Shown: piece after piece, positions 1 to 18,942 of the stretch | How the letters are laid out: each line of letters starts with the position of its first letter | Position numbering within the stretch: position 1 is the first letter of the stretch | Source of the DNA: a virus | Virus record (IMG/VR): IMGVR_UViG_3300008120_000289 | Span: 24,654-45,820 of that record | Direction: 5' to 3' (one strand) | Length of the DNA stretch: 21,167 nucleotides | Notes under the pieces: model-generated | What the model was told of the DNA's origin: nothing | Databases searched by the model: none | Seen by the model: the letters and a program-made list of their open reading frames with translations, nothing else | Position numbers and translations under genes: made by a program

Positions 1-821
1 ACCGCACTATAAATTGGATTTATATTTCTATTTAATAGAAAGTTTTCAACTTCATCTAAATTCTCGTTGAACACTTTATTAACCTCCATGTCGTTTGGTC
101 GTATAATTATATCTCCGTATATATATGTTTCTCCGGCAAATGGTTCTCCATCTACAAAAACTCTTAAAAATCCTGAAGTTAAAGAATTTGTAGGGATTAT
201 CCTTGTTAGGGGATAAGCATTACCTTTGTAATATAAATTATATTTTACCGCCTGTTTTGGTAAATCTCTTAAATCAGATACTTTAATTTCTTTTAAAGAT
301 AAATTTCGTGTTGAATTTACTGTAAAATCTATATCAAAAGGGTTTCTTAAATTTATAATATCCAAATCAAAACCTGTTTCATTTGAAATTACATTATACT
401 CAACGTCTGTGGCCGTAACTCCTGTTGCAAATGTTGGCCTATAAAATGCCGAAACTAATCCTGCGGGAAAATAACTAATTACACTTATAACTGAACTAGA
501 TAATCTTTTAGATAAAGAACCATATAGTGTAAAATTTGTTACCTTACTTAAATCAAAGTTTGGGTATACTTTAAAATTGTTTTCAACAATTTGTTTAGAC
601 TGATTTATATCATCAATACCTAAAGATTCTAAACTTATAGGGTCTGAAAAAGTACCGGTATTAAAAGTTCTGTTAGTCTTTTCTGTTACAGATTGTACAA
701 ACTCAAAATTACCTTGAGTTAAACCACCTCCTTGCACAAGTTGTAATCCGACTAAATTGTCAGAAAATGTTCCTTCTCCAGAAGCCTTTTGTGGTGGACA
801 GGTAAATTTATTAGTACTCAT
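1..821 (-). CDS. Phage structural protein, 3' end cut by the window edge
   Basis: An open frame starts at the ATG at 821 and continues for about 273 codons to the left edge without a stop, so the C terminus is missing. The protein begins MSTNKFTCPPQKASGEGTFS and is rich in Asn, Ser, Thr and Phe with little charge, like its neighbours. No signal peptide or membrane segment is visible. The start is chosen because its ATG overlaps the TAA of the upstream gene (TAATG), the same arrangement seen at 2897. I do not recognise a family. Its place at the end of a continuous block of particle genes suggests a tail, baseplate or fibre component; that is inference from context and composition. Confidence 0.75.
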   Translation of the reverse strand, partial: MSTNKFTCPPQKASGEGTFSDNLVGLQLVQGGGLTQGNFEFVQSVTEKTNRTFNTGTFSDPISLESLGIDDINQSKQIVENNFKVYPNFDLSKVTNFTLYGSLSKRLSSSVISVISYFPAGLVSAFYRPTFATGVTATDVEYNVISNETGFDLDIINLRNPFDIDFTVNSTRNLSLKEIKVSDLRDLPKQAVKYNLYYKGNAYPLTRIIPTNSLTSGFLRVFVDGEPFAGETYIYGDIIIRPNDMEVNKVFNENLDEVENFLLNRNINPIYSA

Positions 822-3703: not shown

Positions 3704-3808
3704 AGAAATCTATTGTTGGTACGTTTATGACACTCTCACTATAATTAGTTCCTTCAGGAATTATTCTAAAAATAAAATTAGAAAATGGGTAGTGAGTTCC
3801 GTTAAAAA
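3696..3808 (-). other. -1 frame C-terminal extension of the 3761-5344 gene
   Basis: Downstream of the T5 run the -1 frame stays open for about 36 residues, from NGTHYPFSN to TIDFCE, and stops at TAA 3698-3696. This stop overlaps the GTG of the next gene and fills what would otherwise be the only gap of more than a few bases between genes in the tail block. The local sequence is CCG TTT TTA ACG, which gives an imperfect slippery heptamer (G TTT TTA), and CCGTT/AACGG form a small inverted repeat around it. The extension is very likely part of the real protein. A one-base homopolymer undercall is the simplest cause. Confidence 0.7.
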
Positions 3809-5344
3809 CGGATAATCAACACCAATTCCATTACTATCAATAACTATTTGACTAGCGTCTCCCTCTTCTATATAATCAGAATAGTCTCTTATCTTAATAA
3901 GATTATGTGGTTTGTAATAATACCCTAAACTATTTGATAAAACTCCTCCTGTATCAAAATTATTAGAATTGAAGTTTATCTTATGATTTAATGTTGATAT
4001 TACTCTCTCTTTTTGTTCATAGTCATTCCATTCACAATAATCCCCATCTAAAGTATCTCCTGTCGTTAAACTTCTTGTATATAAAAAAGGAGATGACCAA
4101 GATGTATTATAACTATCTATTGGTAGGTTGGTTTCAGAGTTTGTATTTAATAAGTCCCACCAATCACTAGGTTGATTAAAAACTAAAGGTAGATTAAAAT
4201 CCCATCCTTGTTTTTTTGCACCCAATGTCCATCCAAAATAACCTCTCCATACAACAGTAAAAAATAACTCACTTATTGGTCTTTTTTGATTGTCGATTAT
4301 GTCATTTATTTGTATATCTTCATTAAATGATAAACTATATGATTGAGCACCTTCTTTTATTGAAACTCTTGACATTCTATTAGGAGTATAAGCCATTGAC
4401 TCATATTTCTTACTAATACCAAAAATATTTTGTTCAAACCCGCATTTTGTTAAAACAGCATTATCTAATTTTGTTAATACTTTATGTTTTCTTACATAAT
4501 ATTCTGAAGTAGAATCTGAAGGATTATCCCCTAAAATAACTCTTTTAAAAGTTCCAATAACTCCGTTATTAAACGTTGTACCTGTAAATCCAACATTTAT
4601 AATATTAAAAATATATTCTTCACTTCCAAAATTAGCGTCACCTAAAGAATCAATTTTAAACAAATTTTTTCCGTTGTATGAAAAACTTAATTTAACAAAC
4701 TCATCAGCATTTAATCCGTGTTTAATTGGACAAATAAATTTAACAATACCTAAACCATTCTCAGTAACATTTTCAATTACAAAAGGTATTCCATCTCCCG
4801 AAACCCAATTAATGTATTGTCCACTATACCTTTCATAAACTTTCATTGGTTTTGTATAGTCGTTACTTTTGGCATATGTCATATAGAACATCCAATTATA
4901 ATTGGACGCACTTTTTGGTATAAAAGTTAAATGTTGATTTGGTGGTTGGGTATAACCTGTAACATTATTATCATTTCTAATAAAATCGAATTCATTGTAC
5001 TGTGGTAATCCTGGCCAATATATATTTGGATTTGGTGGGCAATTTTGAGCCGCGGTTATTTCAGGATTTAAGTAATATAGGTTATTTTCAAATGGTTCAT
5101 AATTTGTTTTACCTGAATAAGAGTTTTTAAATAATATAGTGAATTTACAAGACGGTCTAAAGTTACCTGAACTTTGTCTTTCTCCTTGGAAAACATCTTC
5201 TAGACTAATATCAACTGTCCTATCAAATTCGACATTATGTTTCGAATTTTGAATTAACGGAACACTAAAAAGTAAATTAGTATCTGTTGCTGACTTATAT
5301 CTTAGAGACCCTAATACAACTCTATTTTCGTTATTATTACCCAT
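3761..5344 (-). CDS. Structural protein, reading frame disrupted near its C terminus
   Basis: A 527-residue frame that starts one base after the previous stop (TAAATG). It is a beta-rich, Asn/Tyr/Phe-rich protein without membrane segments, typical of the particle proteins here, and I cannot name it. The frame is probably incorrect after about residue 513. At a T5 run (plus-strand A5 at 3804-3808) the reading moves from SNGIGVDYPF into an unlikely tail, TELTTHFLILFLE. The -1 frame gives NGTHYPFSNFIFRIIPEG and continues to a TAA at 3696 that overlaps the next start. One extra T at this run would join the two, giving a product of about 549 residues. Whether this is a sequence error or ribosomal frameshifting cannot be decided here. 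Confidence 0.75.
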   Translation of the reverse strand: MGNNNENRVVLGSLRYKSATDTNLLFSVPLIQNSKHNVEFDRTVDISLEDVFQGERQSSGNFRPSCKFTILFKNSYSGKTNYEPFENNLYYLNPEITAAQNCPPNPNIYWPGLPQYNEFDFIRNDNNVTGYTQPPNQHLTFIPKSASNYNWMFYMTYAKSNDYTKPMKVYERYSGQYINWVSGDGIPFVIENVTENGLGIVKFICPIKHGLNADEFVKLSFSYNGKNLFKIDSLGDANFGSEEYIFNIINVGFTGTTFNNGVIGTFKRVILGDNPSDSTSEYYVRKHKVLTKLDNAVLTKCGFEQNIFGISKKYESMAYTPNRMSRVSIKEGAQSYSLSFNEDIQINDIIDNQKRPISELFFTVVWRGYFGWTLGAKKQGWDFNLPLVFNQPSDWWDLLNTNSETNLPIDSYNTSWSSPFLYTRSLTTGDTLDGDYCEWNDYEQKERVISTLNHKINFNSNNFDTGGVLSNSLGYYYKPHNLIKIRDYSDYIEEGDASQIVIDSNGIGVDYPFLTELTTHFLILFLE

Positions 5345-5345
5345 T

Positions 5346-8300
5346 TTAATTTGTTATATTTTCAAACCCTATCCATTTTCTAGCGAATCTATCCCAAGCA
5401 CTTCTTCCTTTTTTAAGTCCAAAATAAAAATGAAATGGTCCACCTACTGTTATATGTTTTTCTTTACCATTGACTAAGTTATTATAATCTTGGAAAGATA
5501 AATCCGAACTATATTGTCCTGAATTATTAACATTATATATATACCCTTTATTATAACTATTATTAGTTATACCAGGTAAAGTTCTAAAATATCTTGATGA
5601 TTCTGTCAATCTATCCATTTTCTGATAATAATTGGAAAAATATTTTTGACCATCTAAAGGTTCAGTAAACCAAGTATTTGATTGTGCCCCAAATATATTA
5701 GCGGTACTAGGATTATCTTTAAGTTGCCATTGATAAAATGGAACTTTTTGAGTTTTAACATTAAAATAACTAAAAGTACAGTCATTTGTTGACGCTCCTG
5801 AAGGTATTATAATAGTTCTTTTAGGAGATATGAAATCTCTAACTTGAGTGTCCGAAGAAAAGAAAATTCCAAATATACCATTTTCTGAGCCCCCATTACT
5901 AAAATAAATTGGACCTGTTCCTGGTACATCAGGATAACTTTCACTTTGAAATTCATTAACTCCTAACTCAGAATTTATAGAAATCATTTGAGCGTAGTCA
6001 GCATCTACTTGAAATCTACCTCTACTGTCAAAGTATTTTAACACACTGTTACCTCCGCTACCAAAAACTTGACTCCAAAATCCTGAATTAGCCATTCTTG
6101 ATAACATAAAAATGTTAAAAATTTCTGATACGTCTCCAAATGTTGTTGTTCTTAATTGACTAACAACATATCCGTCATAATCATCAGACATTATAATTTC
6201 TTGTAGATAAAAATTTCTAGGACCTAAATCAATTAATGTTGTTGGGTATCTTAAATTACCTAACTGAACTGTTGATTCAGTTCCAGGTGACCCACAAAAA
6301 TATTGTTCTGTTGTTCCTGAATAGTATGGGCTACTTCTATAATAAAAATTATTTGTTGTTGGGTCAAAATAAACTGTTCTATCACATATATCACTTGTTG
6401 GTTGGTTTTGATTATTAAAAATTCTATTATTTTTAAACGCAAATGCGTATAAAGAACCATTAATCCAATTATTTGTGAACACATGTGAAAATACATTCCT
6501 ACAAGCTCCGAACACTATTTTAGTTCTCGCAGCCCATTCCGCAATTAATAAAAAGTCTGTTGGTATTGATAACAAAATTCTTGTAACTAATTTATAACAT
6601 CCTGTTTTCCATATTAATTTAGGACTTCCATCATATTCGGTACTTTTACAAGCATCCCCCGTTTTTAATCTAAATTCATCTCCAACAAATTCATAACATT
6701 TTAATGGTACCGAATCCTGACATTCATTTAAACTATTAATAACAGTATTATTTAATGTATTGGATGTAAAAGTATTTCCATCATAAGGACCTTGAGTTAA
6801 AAAAGGTATTGTAGTGGTTTGTGAAGGTAATATTCCATTTTCTCCAATAACATAAATTGAAAAATTTGGGTTATTTTGTAATAAATAATCTATTTCACAA
6901 TTTGAAAAAACATTTGTTGAAGTTGGTAATCTATCAGACCTCATTACTGTTTTTCTATTTGTTTTGATTGTTGTTGGGTATGTTACGGTTGTTGCTGTAG
7001 AATATGATGTTGATAGATACGCAGTTACAACGGCAGGACTTCCAATGGTTGTATCTCTTATAGTAACATCCATAATCATTAAACCCCCCCCTTCAACAAT
7101 TTCGGAAACAAAATACCCTCTGTTTTTTGATAATGTATTATTGGGGGTTGGAGCGTAATAAGGGACTAATGGTAATGGTGGTGGTGAACTTGATGAAAAA
7201 ACAGGGGTATTAAATTCATATACAAAGGCGTTTTTACCATACCACCCTGTTGGGGAAGATGAGGAATAGGTAATATTACCAATTGCTCTAGCACCATAAG
7301 TAGTTTGACTTAAAACTGTGTTCAGATATAATGGACTAAGGTTACAACAAGTACCAAAAGTGACGCTATTTAAATTATTATCTAAGTTAGAATAATATGA
7401 TGGTAAATTTGAACCAAATCCACTAAATTGTGTTGTTGATGGTTGATAATTAAATGATTTAAAATATAAGTTGGAGTTGGAATATGATGAGTCTAAATCT
7501 GTACTATTAGTTAAATTATGTCTTATGTTTTTAAACCCTCCTACGATAGGTTGATTTAATTTATAAAAACCTTTAATAAGAACATTATTATAAGATGAAT
7601 GTCCAAATATTTTACTTAAATCATACGTTACAGGTTGTTTTGATGAATATGGGTCAACTCCTCTAACTAAAAATAAACATACCTGATTTTGGTAGTCGTC
7701 AAAAGCGGTTAATGGATTTATACCGGTAATTGGTTCTGATTGATTATCAGGAGCACCATCTTTATATATCTTTAAAAACCACATAGTATTATTCAAAAAA
7801 CGTTTGTTTAATGAATTCGTTAATGTTGTTCCTTGTTGCGACGCAAAATTTGAATAAGTCATCGCGGTTATCACTTGGAAGTATTCTAAATCAATAGGAT
7901 ATTTGTGATAGTTGGTATCGGCAGAATTTGGTGTTGGTATTGTGTAATTTACTGAGCCAGGAGTTCCATCGGGTTTAACATAATTAACTGTTACAGGATA
8001 AGCGGCGGTGTTAACCGGTGTTCCCGTTATTGAATTATTACCGTATTGATTTGTTGGTCCTCCAACAACATTAACATCTTTACTAAAACTAGGATTTTGG
8101 AAAGTTATAATATCTCCATCATTAAAACTTTGTAAACTATCAGGAGTTAACATTAAGAATACAATATTATCATAATGAGCGTCAATATCCGAAGTCATAG
8201 TCCCACCTGTTAAGAAACTTACTTTAATTTGGTTGACACCTCCTCCAGGGTTGTTTGGGATTTCGTCAAAAAATTTAGCCTTCGTATTAAATAAATTAAT

Positions 8301-10100
8301 TCTTTCACCTAAATTTAAACTACTTGTGAATACATAGTCTTCATTACCTGAAGAGTCGACACTAAGGGTTAAATTAGGAACTAAACTACCGCAAACCGGA
8401 GTATCTGTAGGTGGGTTTAAAAATTCTTGACCCGCAACTGATTGTCCTATAAATGAATATATTGGTTGACTGCTAACTAAATTAAGAAAATAGTTGTTGG
8501 TGTAAAATTCTGATATTTGACCTTGTACATTATTAGAAATATCGGAAGAATTTCCTCCAATTGCACCGGCACCTCCTCCAACTCCTGAAGTGCTTTGTGA
8601 CGGACTTCCTGCACCAGGTAAGCTTGGCATACCTCCCGCAACTTCAGATTCGTAACTATCTTGTATGTCATTTTCTTCTTGATTACAATCACAAAATTCA
8701 CATTGGTCATACAACATTATAGGTAAACTAAATGGTTTAAGTTTAACGTCTTTTAATTTTTTCCATAAAAATGCAAAAGCAACGGTTGCTAATCCCCAAC
8801 CAATAGCCTTTTTAAGGGATATAAAAAATAATTTAAAATTTGGGGAGACAGGTCCGGCAGGGGTAACGACACCAATATTTAAAGCAGCAATTGCCGAAGA
8901 TACTTCTTTAAGTAGGAAATAAAAACTTAGAGCAGCCAAAAAAATACCCAAGTATTTTACAATGATTATTAGAACATATAAAACATGAATCACCACAACC
9001 AGTGGTAACATTATAATTTGAAATATACTGATAAAAAATAAAAATATTAAGAATATAATATCTCCTCTATATACCGCATCATTTGTTGGAAATCTGTTAT
9101 TTTCGCTTTCGCAACTTTCATCTAATATATTCTTTATACTAACAAACCTATTTGGTAATGTACCTTGTCTGTGTTTATCGATTAATTGTGAAACAGAATA
9201 AACTTTATTATAAGCCATTTCATAAAATGAATCTTCACAATTAATTCCTGATTGAGGGTCAACATAATCGTCCCAATTAATACTAAATGCGTATGATTTA
9301 CGAAGTAATGTTTGATTAATAACTGTATTACCTCCGGAATCCCAACCAAATTCTCTGATATTTGGTACTAAATAATAACCTCTCTTTGTGTCTTCATTTA
9401 ATGTTGGAGATTGATTCCATTTTATTTTAAATCTATATTTTGCCTTAGTGGGTACACCAATTTTTGGGTCGTTAGATAAAACTTTTTCACCAAATTCGTT
9501 TGTTGTAACAAAATCTAAATTCATTGGTATATCAACAAGCCATGTTCCGTTTTCATCAATAACTTGTCCTCCTGATTCTAAATCAAAAGATTCTAAAAAC
9601 GGTCTTCCTAATGTGTCTTGAAATATTGTTTGTCTTATAGTTAGTATTTCTCCAGGACCGGCAATTAAATTACATAGTTCACCTTGTTTTAATCTTGGTT
9701 TACAATTTGATTTTAACGCCATTGTATCTATATCTGAAAATATAGAACCCATAAAAATTGCGGTCGGGGTTATTGTTATATTAGCCTCATCAGTTAAATC
9801 AAAATCTGTTCTTGTTATACCTAAATTACAAATCTCAGGTTGACCCCATAATGGCTCTACTTGTATAACCCTATTAATAGAAATTATTTGAGGTAATTCT
9901 GCTAAATTTGTAGATGACCTAAATTTTGTTCCTGAAATCTGAGATTCTGTGGCAACACCCATTCTTATCAAATCTTGAGGCGATAATGAAAATTCACCAA
10001 TGTCTGATAAATCAATATCAACATGTATTGTTTGTTGTCCCACAGGAACTCCAAAAATCATAAACATAAGGTAATAGATTATACCTATAACCATCCTCAT
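5346..10100 (-). CDS. Giant structural protein with membrane segments, main part of a broken gene
   Basis: A frame of 1584 residues. The first 12 or so residues (MRMVIGIIYYLM) are out-of-frame readings of the upstream fragment; authentic sequence begins near FMIFGVPVGQQ, the end of a regulatory-type beta-sandwich. After that come LSPQDLIRMG and a beta-rich region to about residue 330. Hydrophobic segments consistent with membrane helices follow at about 346-397 and 425-447. Next are a cysteine cluster CEFCDC at 467-472 and a Gly/Ser-rich linker at about 489-517. The remaining thousand residues are Asn/Ser/Tyr-rich and beta-type. I recall large proteins of this kind in tail clusters of marine T4-like phages but cannot assign a T4 homologue. 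A role in the baseplate or tail, perhaps contacting the host membrane, is inference. Confidence 0.75.
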   Translation of the reverse strand: MRMVIGIIYYLMFMIFGVPVGQQTIHVDIDLSDIGEFSLSPQDLIRMGVATESQISGTKFRSSTNLAELPQIISINRVIQVEPLWGQPEICNLGITRTDFDLTDEANITITPTAIFMGSIFSDIDTMALKSNCKPRLKQGELCNLIAGPGEILTIRQTIFQDTLGRPFLESFDLESGGQVIDENGTWLVDIPMNLDFVTTNEFGEKVLSNDPKIGVPTKAKYRFKIKWNQSPTLNEDTKRGYYLVPNIREFGWDSGGNTVINQTLLRKSYAFSINWDDYVDPQSGINCEDSFYEMAYNKVYSVSQLIDKHRQGTLPNRFVSIKNILDESCESENNRFPTNDAVYRGDIIFLIFLFFISIFQIIMLPLVVVIHVLYVLIIIVKYLGIFLAALSFYFLLKEVSSAIAALNIGVVTPAGPVSPNFKLFFISLKKAIGWGLATVAFAFLWKKLKDVKLKPFSLPIMLYDQCEFCDCNQEENDIQDSYESEVAGGMPSLPGAGSPSQSTSGVGGGAGAIGGNSSDISNNVQGQISEFYTNNYFLNLVSSQPIYSFIGQSVAGQEFLNPPTDTPVCGSLVPNLTLSVDSSGNEDYVFTSSLNLGERINLFNTKAKFFDEIPNNPGGGVNQIKVSFLTGGTMTSDIDAHYDNIVFLMLTPDSLQSFNDGDIITFQNPSFSKDVNVVGGPTNQYGNNSITGTPVNTAAYPVTVNYVKPDGTPGSVNYTIPTPNSADTNYHKYPIDLEYFQVITAMTYSNFASQQGTTLTNSLNKRFLNNTMWFLKIYKDGAPDNQSEPITGINPLTAFDDYQNQVCLFLVRGVDPYSSKQPVTYDLSKIFGHSSYNNVLIKGFYKLNQPIVGGFKNIRHNLTNSTDLDSSYSNSNLYFKSFNYQPSTTQFSGFGSNLPSYYSNLDNNLNSVTFGTCCNLSPLYLNTVLSQTTYGARAIGNITYSSSSPTGWYGKNAFVYEFNTPVFSSSSPPPLPLVPYYAPTPNNTLSKNRGYFVSEIVEGGGLMIMDVTIRDTTIGSPAVVTAYLSTSYSTATTVTYPTTIKTNRKTVMRSDRLPTSTNVFSNCEIDYLLQNNPNFSIYVIGENGILPSQTTTIPFLTQGPYDGNTFTSNTLNNTVINSLNECQDSVPLKCYEFVGDEFRLKTGDACKSTEYDGSPKLIWKTGCYKLVTRILLSIPTDFLLIAEWAARTKIVFGACRNVFSHVFTNNWINGSLYAFAFKNNRIFNNQNQPTSDICDRTVYFDPTTNNFYYRSSPYYSGTTEQYFCGSPGTESTVQLGNLRYPTTLIDLGPRNFYLQEIIMSDDYDGYVVSQLRTTTFGDVSEIFNIFMLSRMANSGFWSQVFGSGGNSVLKYFDSRGRFQVDADYAQMISINSELGVNEFQSESYPDVPGTGPIYFSNGGSENGIFGIFFSSDTQVRDFISPKRTIIIPSGASTNDCTFSYFNVKTQKVPFYQWQLKDNPSTANIFGAQSNTWFTEPLDGQKYFSNYYQKMDRLTESSRYFRTLPGITNNSYNKGYIYNVNNSGQYSSDLSFQDYNNLVNGKEKHITVGGPFHFYFGLKKGRSAWDRFARKWIGFENITN

Positions 10101-10389
10101 TTACATCACTTAATGATTTATAAGGATATAATTCAGAAATTATCGGATTAGTTTCATCTTCTTGGTCTAAAGGAATAAAAATTGAAATTTTAGCATTTGG
10201 GATTCCATATCCGTTATTTGAGGTAACTCTACCAACAACTACTCCGTAATCAGAACATTGTCTGTTGTATATTTGACTTTGTAATATTTTTAGAGATAAT
10301 ATCTCCAAATATTCAAAATCTTGGTTTAATAAAACTCTGATTGATTTATCAACTCCAACTTGTGTTCTAATCCTAATTGAATTCGGCAT
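10018..10389 (-). CDS. N-terminal fragment of the giant structural protein
   Basis: A 123-residue frame that overlaps the 1584-residue frame by 83 bases. Residues 1-109 look genuine: they include VVVGRVTSNNGYGIPNAKIS, a start typical of carboxypeptidase-regulatory-like beta-sandwich domains, and end with VNEDGYRYNLLPY. The last 14 residues (YDFWSSCGTTNNTC) are the out-of-frame reading of the DNA that encodes MIFGVPVGQQTIHV in the downstream frame. The two frames therefore belong to one gene, and the sandwich domain is split across the junction near 10065. The frame ends in TGA, whereas intact genes here all end in TAA. From memory of related proteins some tens of codons may also be missing, but a simple frameshift cannot be excluded. 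Confidence 0.7.
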   Translation of the reverse strand: MPNSIRIRTQVGVDKSIRVLLNQDFEYLEILSLKILQSQIYNRQCSDYGVVVGRVTSNNGYGIPNAKISIFIPLDQEDETNPIISELYPYKSLSDVNEDGYRYNLLPYVYDFWSSCGTTNNTC

Positions 10390-16222: not shown

Positions 16223-16690
16223 TTAATTATTTTGCTGTCTTTGTTTTCTCTTCTCAAGTAAATCTTTTACTCTTTGTCTATTTTGTTCTTCTTTTTGTTC
16301 TTCTAATCCTAAGAATGTTACCGAACTTTCAGTATCAATCTCTAACATCCCGTTGTCAAATTTACAGTTCTCAAAAACCACACCATCATCTCCGATACGT
16401 GATTTTGTAATTGCAATGGTTGCAAGTTTCATTTCTTTTTGTTGTAATGTTTTTGCAACAGATATGATAACGTGACCAACTTGAGCCTTTTTAATTGACC
16501 CACCCATTTGGTCTGTTGTTACAACCTCAGATGAAATTGAACTTCTATTACCTTGTGTTGCCGTCCATCCAACTATTGATAGTTCGTGACACATCGCTTC
16601 AAATGCTCTCATAACCGAACCTTCTGATTTCCATTCGTCACCTAAGTTCTTATCAGGAACAACACAATCAATATAATCTAATAAAACCAT
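16223..16690 (-). CDS. 41: Replicative helicase gp41/DnaB type, C-terminal fragment
   Basis: A 155-residue frame holding the second half of a RecA-like helicase core. It begins exactly at Walker B ([10 protein letters not shown]5), continues with the [10 protein letters not shown] sensor segment (Q46), and ends the core with [11 protein letters not shown], matching the arginine-finger region of DnaB (family knowledge). A Glu/Lys/Gln-rich tail follows. By itself it lacks Walker A and the N-terminal domain and could not be a helicase. It overlaps the preceding N-terminal fragment by 13 bases in another frame, and a TGA lies 12 bases upstream of its ATG in the same frame. It is best read as the 3' part of one gene broken by a deletion. 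Confidence 0.85.
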
Positions 16691-17451
16691 ATGGATAATT
16701 CATCAGGATGAACCTTTGTCCATAAAGTAATATGTTTTCTTTGAATAATCTTTGGATTGTCCTCAAAAAAGATTTGAAGGACGTTATATCCAAGATTATA
16801 CGCGTGATTTGATATTTTAGTCAAGAATGTTGATTTACCTACGCCAGTTGGTGCTAAGATAACGCCAATTTCTCCTTTTGCCAAACCTCCCTTTAATAAT
16901 CTATCAATACCCGGTATTCCCATAGGGATAGGGTGTCTGTAATCTTCATTTAATACATCATCTAGGTTAAAGAAAACGTCAGACATTCCGTCTTCTCTCT
17001 CTCCAACTTGTAAAGCCTCTCTAACCAAGGTTTCTAATTGTTCATAGTTCTCAAATTCACCGCCATCGATTACTTTTTGAGCCTTAGTAATTGCTTTCTG
17101 TAATTCTTGTTGTTTACAGAATTTCATTGCTTTGTCTTGAACGAAGGTACTTCCTTCGTGAGGTGCGTCCTTAACTTTAACTAACGTATCTAAAACTATT
17201 TTAGACGCTAATTCTTGTTGTAATTCAGACTTAGTAATTTGTTCTAAAGTATCGAAATTAGGGGTGTGTTCGTATTTCCCGTAATATTCCTTAATCATTT
17301 GGAATATTAATTTGAAATACTTATTCTCAAAGTATTGAGAATCCATGACATCAATAATTGACCTTGAAAAATCTTTATCTACGATAATTTGGTTTAGAAG
17401 TTGAAGTTGGAAAGTACTACCTAGATACTCGAAATTTTTGTTTGACGCCAT
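16678..17451 (-). CDS. 41: Replicative helicase gp41/DnaB type, N-terminal fragment
   Basis: A 257-residue frame with the helical N-terminal domain (about 1-150), the linker and the first part of the RecA-like ATPase core: MGIPGIDRLLKGGLAKGE, Walker A LAPTGVGKST (K206) and the IFFEDNPK strand. In T4 gp41 unwinds DNA ahead of the leading-strand polymerase and recruits primase. The frame ends with SIWFY and TAG soon after HPDELS, while Walker B begins in a different frame at the very next bases. Only about 50 residues separate the Walker A lysine from the Walker B aspartate in the combined sequence, against roughly 100 in DnaB and gp41. Some 50-60 codons are therefore missing, in addition to the frame change. 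No intron or inserted element lies at the junction. Confidence 0.85.
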   Translation of the reverse strand: MASNKNFEYLGSTFQLQLLNQIIVDKDFSRSIIDVMDSQYFENKYFKLIFQMIKEYYGKYEHTPNFDTLEQITKSELQQELASKIVLDTLVKVKDAPHEGSTFVQDKAMKFCKQQELQKAITKAQKVIDGGEFENYEQLETLVREALQVGEREDGMSDVFFNLDDVLNEDYRHPIPMGIPGIDRLLKGGLAKGEIGVILAPTGVGKSTFLTKISNHAYNLGYNVLQIFFEDNPKIIQRKHITLWTKVHPDELSIWFY

Positions 17452-17934: not shown

Positions 17935-18942
17935 TTATTTATTTGTTTGGTATTTTTTCTTTTCTTTTCTTGTTAACTTTAAAAATGGTTTTATAAAATT
18001 AACCCATGCGTCATCTCCTTTTGGTAGGAACTTAAAAAAACCATCTTCCATCATAAGTTTAATTAAGTTTCGATAACCTCTTCCTTCAGGGTCTAATGTT
18101 TCATTATAATAAAGTTCAACGATTTCTTTTCCTTCTTCTGTGATAATTGGGTTTGATAAGTCAACAATCTTTTGATTGATTTCGAAGAATTCCTCTCCAT
18201 ATATTCCCGTTTTTGTTTTTCCTGTTAGTAAATTCTTTAATACCTTGTTCTCTTTGTCCTCTTTTAAGAGTTCTTCAGCTCTATTTAAAATATCGGTAAA
18301 AGAAATTGGTTTTTCAAGTATCTCAGGAAATAATTTTACTAAAGTTTTTTCCCCCAAATAGTAGATTCCGTCAATATTATCTGATTTATCTCCCGATAAT
18401 ATCTTATAAGTCTTTATATTATAGTGTGGGAACTCATAATCGTATATTCTAATCTTATCACCATGCTTATAATATTGTCTTGTTGAAGGTGAATATATTG
18501 TTACGTTTTCTGAAATTAATTGGGTTAAATCTTTGTCGGATGAGAATATTGTTTTGTGTTCGTTAGTTGAAATTTGACAATAGTATGATATCAAATCATC
18601 CGCCTCATTCTTTTCAACATTGATTTGTCTTACAAATGTTTCTTCTAAGTATTGTTTGATTCTTTCTTTCTGATAATTAGAAGATTCTTCTTTGAATGGG
18701 TTGTCTAATTCTCTTCTATTTTCTTTATACTGAGGGTAAATTGTTTTTCTAGCAACTGAATTCTCATTTCCATCCCAAAATACAACTACTTTGTCGAAAT
18801 TACTTTCTTCAATAAATTTTCTTAAAGTATTCACGAAGTGCCAGATTGCCCCAATATGTCTAGCATTATGGTAATAATCCTTAACTCCGTGAAGTCCTAT
18901 TTTAAATAGGTTGTTTCCGTCAACCAATAATGTTTTAATCAC
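17935..18942 (-). CDS. rnh: 5'-3' exonuclease, T4 RNase H / FEN-like
   Basis: A 335-residue nuclease of the FEN/PIN-like family; T4 RNase H (305) removes RNA primers and adjacent DNA from lagging-strand fragments. Acidic metal ligands appear in the expected order: D8 (LLVDGNN), D57 (VVFWDGNEN), E113/D115/D116 (EADDLI), D136 and D138 (SSDKDLTQLI), and D185/D188 (SGDKSDNIDGI). The last lies in the helix-hairpin-helix region that grips duplex DNA. The basic arch segment ARKTIYPQYKENR at 64-76 fits the threading helix. The start is GTG at 18942, ten bases after the uvsX stop and preceded by AAAAAG. The C terminus is strongly basic (LTRKEKKKYQTNK). Confidence 0.92.
   Translation of the reverse strand: MIKTLLVDGNNLFKIGLHGVKDYYHNARHIGAIWHFVNTLRKFIEESNFDKVVVFWDGNENSVARKTIYPQYKENRRELDNPFKEESSNYQKERIKQYLEETFVRQINVEKNEADDLISYYCQISTNEHKTIFSSDKDLTQLISENVTIYSPSTRQYYKHGDKIRIYDYEFPHYNIKTYKILSGDKSDNIDGIYYLGEKTLVKLFPEILEKPISFTDILNRAEELLKEDKENKVLKNLLTGKTKTGIYGEEFFEINQKIVDLSNPIITEEGKEIVELYYNETLDPEGRGYRNLIKLMMEDGFFKFLPKGDDAWVNFIKPFLKLTRKEKKKYQTNK

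What the first reader, a model, noticed from the sequence alone, without database searches (positions are those of the whole stretch)
16660..16720. Helicase gene broken by an out-of-frame internal deletion between Walker A and Walker B
The N-terminal frame carries Walker A and ends TAG; the next frame begins precisely at Walker B. The joined sequence has about 50 residues between the Walker A Lys and Walker B Asp, where DnaB/gp41 proteins have roughly 100. No inserted DNA lies at the junction, which sits at the palindrome CCATATGG (16687-16694). A replicative helicase is expected to be essential, so either the sequence is wrong here, this copy is a minority deletion variant, or a functional helicase is encoded elsewhere.
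Basis: partly seen in the sequence, partly recalled or inferred. Interest (0 to 1): 0.7.

Follow-up and report, generated by a model that had tools for sequence, protein, structure and literature searches.

The report
Assembly error inside a phage helicase
The broken helicase gene is almost certainly an error in how this virus fragment was pieced together by computer, because other copies of the very same virus have the gene whole.

Summary
The window's T4 gp41/DnaB-like helicase lacks 151 bp between Walker A and Walker B. Of 156 relative loci fetched (capped lists), 155 hold both halves; all 155 keep the full spacing (102 residues Lys to Asp) with no stop. The junction 30-mer was in no other viral contig scanned. 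Two records of the same virus decide it: IMGVR_UViG_3300031857_024884 (203 kb; 3 substitutions against the window's record over about 32 kb) and IMGVR_UViG_3300031787_000997 (21 kb). Both have the helicase whole. Against both, the window shows three unmarked losses: 75 bp at 3842/3843 (plus 1 nt nearby), 131 bp at 10063/10064, 151 bp at 16691/16692. A 9-N scaffold gap lies directly before the window. Three coding losses of 75-151 bp beside three substitutions fit contig ends joined with the gap between them dropped, not evolution. Each of six related records gave one DnaB_C match, so a second helicase is unsupported. The palindrome CCATATGG is made by the join. Raw reads were not available; a minority deletion variant is not formally excluded.

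The parts
16678..17451 (-). N-terminal part of the gp41/DnaB-like helicase (257 aa, Walker A GVGKST); residues 1-254 match relatives, the last 3 are out-of-frame read-through ending in TAG
16223..16690 (-). C-terminal part of the same gene (155 aa, begins at Walker B LLDYID)
16691..16692 (.). False junction 1: 151 bp absent relative to G010, G011 and L002; 2-bp overlap AT; creates the palindrome CCATATGG (16687-16694)
10063..10064 (.). False junction 2: 131 bp absent relative to G010, G011, L179 and L182; 79 of 79 loci with both flanks have 138 nt where the window has 7; splits one 1751-1925-aa frame of the relatives into ORFs 10018-10389 and 5346-10100
3842..3843 (.). False junction 3: 75 bp absent relative to G010 and G011; blunt join. 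The 25 missing residues are conserved in 3 of 3 relatives aligned
3803..3804 (.). One base missing relative to G010 and G011 in a run of A (six in G010, five here), 38 bp from junction 3; shifts the frame of the last part of ORF 3761-5344
1..3 (.). The window begins directly after a 9-N scaffold gap (record 24645-24653), where G010 has 5 real bases

Best explanation
The break is an assembly artefact. The virus carries one intact T4 gp41-type (DnaB-like) helicase gene of about 459 codons. In the record that holds the window, neighbouring contig ends were joined with the unsequenced or unresolved stretch between them dropped and no N written. This happened at three places in the window (151, 131 and 75 bp lost, with 2, 2 and 0 bp of overlap), and a fourth join just before the window is marked by nine Ns. 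Shown: the losses, the intact copies in the same virus, the conservation of all three lost stretches, the N gap. Inferred: that short-read scaffolding or gap closing was the step that did it (no reads and no assembler name were available).
For: Same virus, intact: G010 (203 kb) has 3 substitutions, one 1-nt indel and one N gap against the window's record over record positions 13620-45820, apart from the three losses; its helicase is 459 aa, one open frame, 100% identical to the sister protein P0003, and so is G011's. G010 and G011 agree at all three sites on 75, 131 and 151 bp. L179 and L182 also hold the 131 bp. Conservation: 155 of 155 loci with both helicase halves have the same spacing and no stop between (107 distinct gene sequences); 79 of 79 loci at the second site; 3 of 3 relatives at the third. 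Uniqueness: junction 30-mer in 0 other viral contigs. Several lesions of one kind lie in 21 kb, with an N gap beside them. Purifying selection up to the present: of the differences from sister L002 in the two retained helicase parts all are silent (15+10, one of them in the junction codon). Published parallel: PMC11017572 (abstract seen) reports that many pseudogenes in bacterial assemblies are assembly errors.
Against: No raw reads could be mapped, so a real deletion in part of the population is not formally excluded. The collection scans may leave out records very near the window (stated by the tool), so other carriers of the junction could be hidden. The two intact records come from other metagenomes, not demonstrably from the window's own sample. 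I did not identify the assembler. No paper describing exactly this collapse was found in two searches.
Confidence: 0.95

Rival explanations
1. A real deletion variant: a minority of genomes in the population (defective particles, or cells carrying dead phage DNA) truly lack these stretches, and the assembler took that path.
For: The joins are clean, and at two of the three sites there is a 2-bp overlap, as in end-joining. No reads were available to exclude it.
Against: Three coding losses of 75-151 bp plus a 1-nt loss in one molecule, beside 3 substitutions in 32 kb, would need a burst of deletions without point mutations. Overlaps of 0-2 bp are what chance gives. No other contig scanned carries the helicase junction.
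Confidence: 0.04
2. A truly dead helicase gene whose function is taken over by a second helicase elsewhere in the genome.
For: The window's record is a 45.8-kb linear fragment, so the rest of that genome is not seen.
Against: Two other records of the same virus carry the gene intact. DnaB_C gave exactly one match in each of 6 of 6 records, including the 203-kb record of the same virus and relatives of 177-322 kb; 25 of 25 single-base differences from sister L002 in the retained parts are silent.
Confidence: 0.005
3. A working gene expressed by recoding, trans-splicing or two subunits, with a shortened core.
For: Both parts keep start-like codons and conserved sequence.
Against: Coding sequence is missing rather than interrupted: 50 residues of the ATPase core between Walker A and Walker B are absent, and 155 of 155 loci keep them. 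Two unrelated genes in the window have the same kind of lesion.
Confidence: 0.003

Closest known systems
T4 gp41 / DnaB-like replicative helicase (PHROG 19; PDB 8DTP)
   Same: The intact sister protein P0003 matches phrog_19 'DnaB-like replicative helicase' (E 1.2e-59, residues 13-446) and T4 gp41 chain 8dtp_A (E 1.4e-17, residues 18-429; 8DTP is T4 gp41 by PMC10359460, passage seen). DnaB_C is over its cut-off in 6 of 6 related records. Neighbouring genes match a gp32-like SSB and a 5'-3' exonuclease.
   Different: Only the window's copy lacks 151 bp; the gene itself shows nothing unusual in its relatives.
Spurious pseudogenes created by assembly (PMC11017572, abstract seen)
   Same: A near-identical genome has the gene intact while this assembly shows it broken; several broken genes in one assembly.
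   Different: That paper concerns bacterial genomes; here the lesions are losses of 75-151 bp in a metagenomic phage record.

Membership tests
T4 gp41 / DnaB-like replicative helicase | Sequence match over the whole protein to the family profile | tested here: met
   Intact sister P0003: phrog_19 E 1.2e-59, PDB 8dtp_A E 1.4e-17; DnaB_C over cut-off in G010 and G011, the same virus. The window's N-terminal part alone scores 14.4 bits, below the cut-off of 27, and the C-terminal part alone hits no Pfam family.
T4 gp41 / DnaB-like replicative helicase | Walker A and Walker B in one frame with about 100 residues between | tested here: not met
   Not met in the window's own text (51.7 codons, two frames); met in 155 of 155 relative loci (102 residues) and by whole open frames in G010 and G011. 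Read as an error of this record.
T4 gp41 / DnaB-like replicative helicase | ATP-driven 5'-3' unwinding as a hexamer | not testable with these tools
   Biochemistry; not tested.
Assembly artefact (collapsed gap) | Near-identical copies of the same genome are intact at the site | tested here: met
   G010 and G011 at all three sites.
Assembly artefact (collapsed gap) | Several lesions of one kind in one record | tested here: met
   Losses of 151, 131 and 75 bp plus a 9-N gap.
Assembly artefact (collapsed gap) | Reads do not support the joins | not testable with these tools

The most novel reading that the evidence does not exclude
A subpopulation of this phage truly carries several short coding deletions, in the helicase and two structural-region genes, with no accompanying point mutations, as defective genomes maintained by intact co-infecting relatives.
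Probability: 0.03. Interest if true: 0.35.

Novelty: not a real feature. Interest (0 to 1): 0.04.

Why it matters
It does not reveal new biology. It is a useful caution: in single metagenomic phage records, stretches of 75-151 bp can vanish without an N, giving apparent dead essential genes. A check against near-identical records exposes this quickly.

Tried and rejected
Second helicase elsewhere: searched with DnaB_C in the window's record (1 match, the N-terminal part) and in six related records (1 match each), and with the intact protein in ten records (one match in each of G010, G011, G001-G004, partial in G012, two pieces in G000, none in the short records G013 and G014). Rejected.

Homologues with a short core: none among 155 loci. 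Palindrome or repeat as cause: the palindrome is made by the join; overlaps are 2, 2 and 0 bp. An imperfect 6-base similarity at the ends, seen first against L002, is not needed. Base composition of the lost stretches is ordinary (32% G+C against 31% for the window).

The 75-bp difference might have been an insertion in the sister instead: rejected, since the 25 residues are conserved in 3 of 3 relatives aligned. Named phages: DNA search of the gene region gave no match in the phage collection. PHROGs gave no family for the other two broken genes. Papers on such collapse: two searches, listings only; the one most apt was seen as abstract. Limits: the relative lists are capped at 80 each, with near records possibly left out; about 118 distinct contigs lie behind the 155 loci (my hand count), 107 distinct gene sequences by script. 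In one search five loci that start inside the gene were read in a wrong frame and 37 missed my Walker B motif; redid the count with corrected frames. The first 13.6 kb of the record has no near-identical partner; there against relatives showed length differences but no frame break.

Full report
What was checked. The two frames exist as described. The minus-strand frame 17451-16678 carries Walker A and ends in TAG; the frame 16690-16223 begins at Walker B. The Lys-to-Asp distance is 155 nt in the window against 102 residues in the intact sister L002. The window is bases 24654-45820 of a 45,820-base linear viral record, and a run of nine Ns lies directly before it (record 24645-24653).

What the gene is. 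The intact sister protein (459 aa, from L002) matches PHROG 19, DnaB-like replicative helicase (E 1.2e-59), and the solved T4 gp41 helicase (8dtp_A, E 1.4e-17; 8DTP identified as gp41 from a passage of PMC10359460). Nearby genes match a gp32-like protein and a 5'-3' exonuclease, so the setting is a T4-like replication cluster; that the phage is T4-like in a wider sense is inference.

Relatives. Searches with each half gave 156 loci besides the window (L002-L157; lists capped at 80 each and some contigs present twice). In 155 both halves were found, always with 150 nt between the matched parts, no stop, and 102 residues from the Lys to the Asp. One locus (L066) ends before the second half. The window's value is -1 nt, i.e. 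151 bp short. The junction 30-mer was found in no other viral contig, with the tool's warning that records very near the window may be left out.

The same virus, intact. A search with the neighbouring broken gene brought up contigs identical in sequence. Record G010 (IMGVR_UViG_3300031857_024884, 203,171 bases) aligns to record positions 13620-45820 with 3 substitutions, a single-base indel, the N gap and three losses. Record G011 (IMGVR_UViG_3300031787_000997, 20,939 bases) shows the same three losses in the window; it differs from the window by 3 substitutions in its body and by 15 differences clustered at window 17994-18352 near its own end, and a further mismatch or so in the part before the window was not itemised. 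Both carry the helicase as one open frame, 459 of 459 residues identical to the sister protein.

Three losses, not one. Site 1: 151 bp at 16691/16692 in the helicase. Site 2: 131 bp at 10063/10064; seven related records have one frame of 1751-1925 aa where the window has two, and 79 of 79 loci with both flanks have 138 nt where the window has 7 (one of 80 loci had one flank only). Site 3: 75 bp at 3842/3843, with one base lost 38 bp away from a run of A; the 25 residues are conserved in three relatives, and four relative frames show the frame shift. Overlaps at the joins are 2, 2 and 0 bp. The palindrome CCATATGG appears only after joining.

Why artefact. Natural decay would leave substitutions along with deletions; here there are three losses totalling 357 bp beside three substitutions in about 32 kb. 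The retained parts of the helicase are under strong purifying selection: 25 differences from L002, all silent, one of them in the junction codon; for 24 differences the chance of all being silent without selection is about 1.5e-17 on the script's simple model. The record is demonstrably a scaffold with an N gap whose length is wrong (9 Ns for 5 bases). All losses are no longer than 151 bases, which is a common short-read length (recalled, not tested here). The best reading is that contig ends were joined and the gap between them dropped.

Other options. One DnaB_C match in each of six related records leaves no sign of a second helicase, with the limit that the records may be fragments. A minority deletion variant remains possible at a few per cent because reads were not available. 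Recoding is rejected because coding sequence is absent, not interrupted.

Literature. PMC11017572 (abstract seen) reports that many apparent pseudogenes in bacterial assemblies are assembly errors. Two searches for papers on this particular collapse gave listings with nothing closer.

Verdict. Interest is low.

Noticed in passing
window 10018-10389 and 5346-10100 (minus strand): A second gene broken by an unmarked loss of 131 bp; relatives have one frame of 1751-1925 aa.
   Followed up: yes
window 3761-5344 (minus strand), near 3804 and 3842: A third gene with 75 bp lost in frame plus one base lost nearby, so the last part of the protein is out of frame.
   Followed up: yes
record G000 24645-24653, directly before window base 1: Scaffold gap of nine Ns where the same virus in another record has five bases, giving a false frame shift across it.
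   Followed up: yes
window 17994-18352, against G011: Fifteen differences clustered near the end of contig G011 while the rest is nearly identical; probably strain mixing at that contig's end.
   Followed up: no
L158 8259-9023 and L159 1-1935 and 1963-4281 (same record, outside the window): Proteins with long proline-threonine repeats (TPTPTPT) and, in L159 5510-8284, repeated SHSEG units; they look like structural or adhesion proteins.
   Followed up: no
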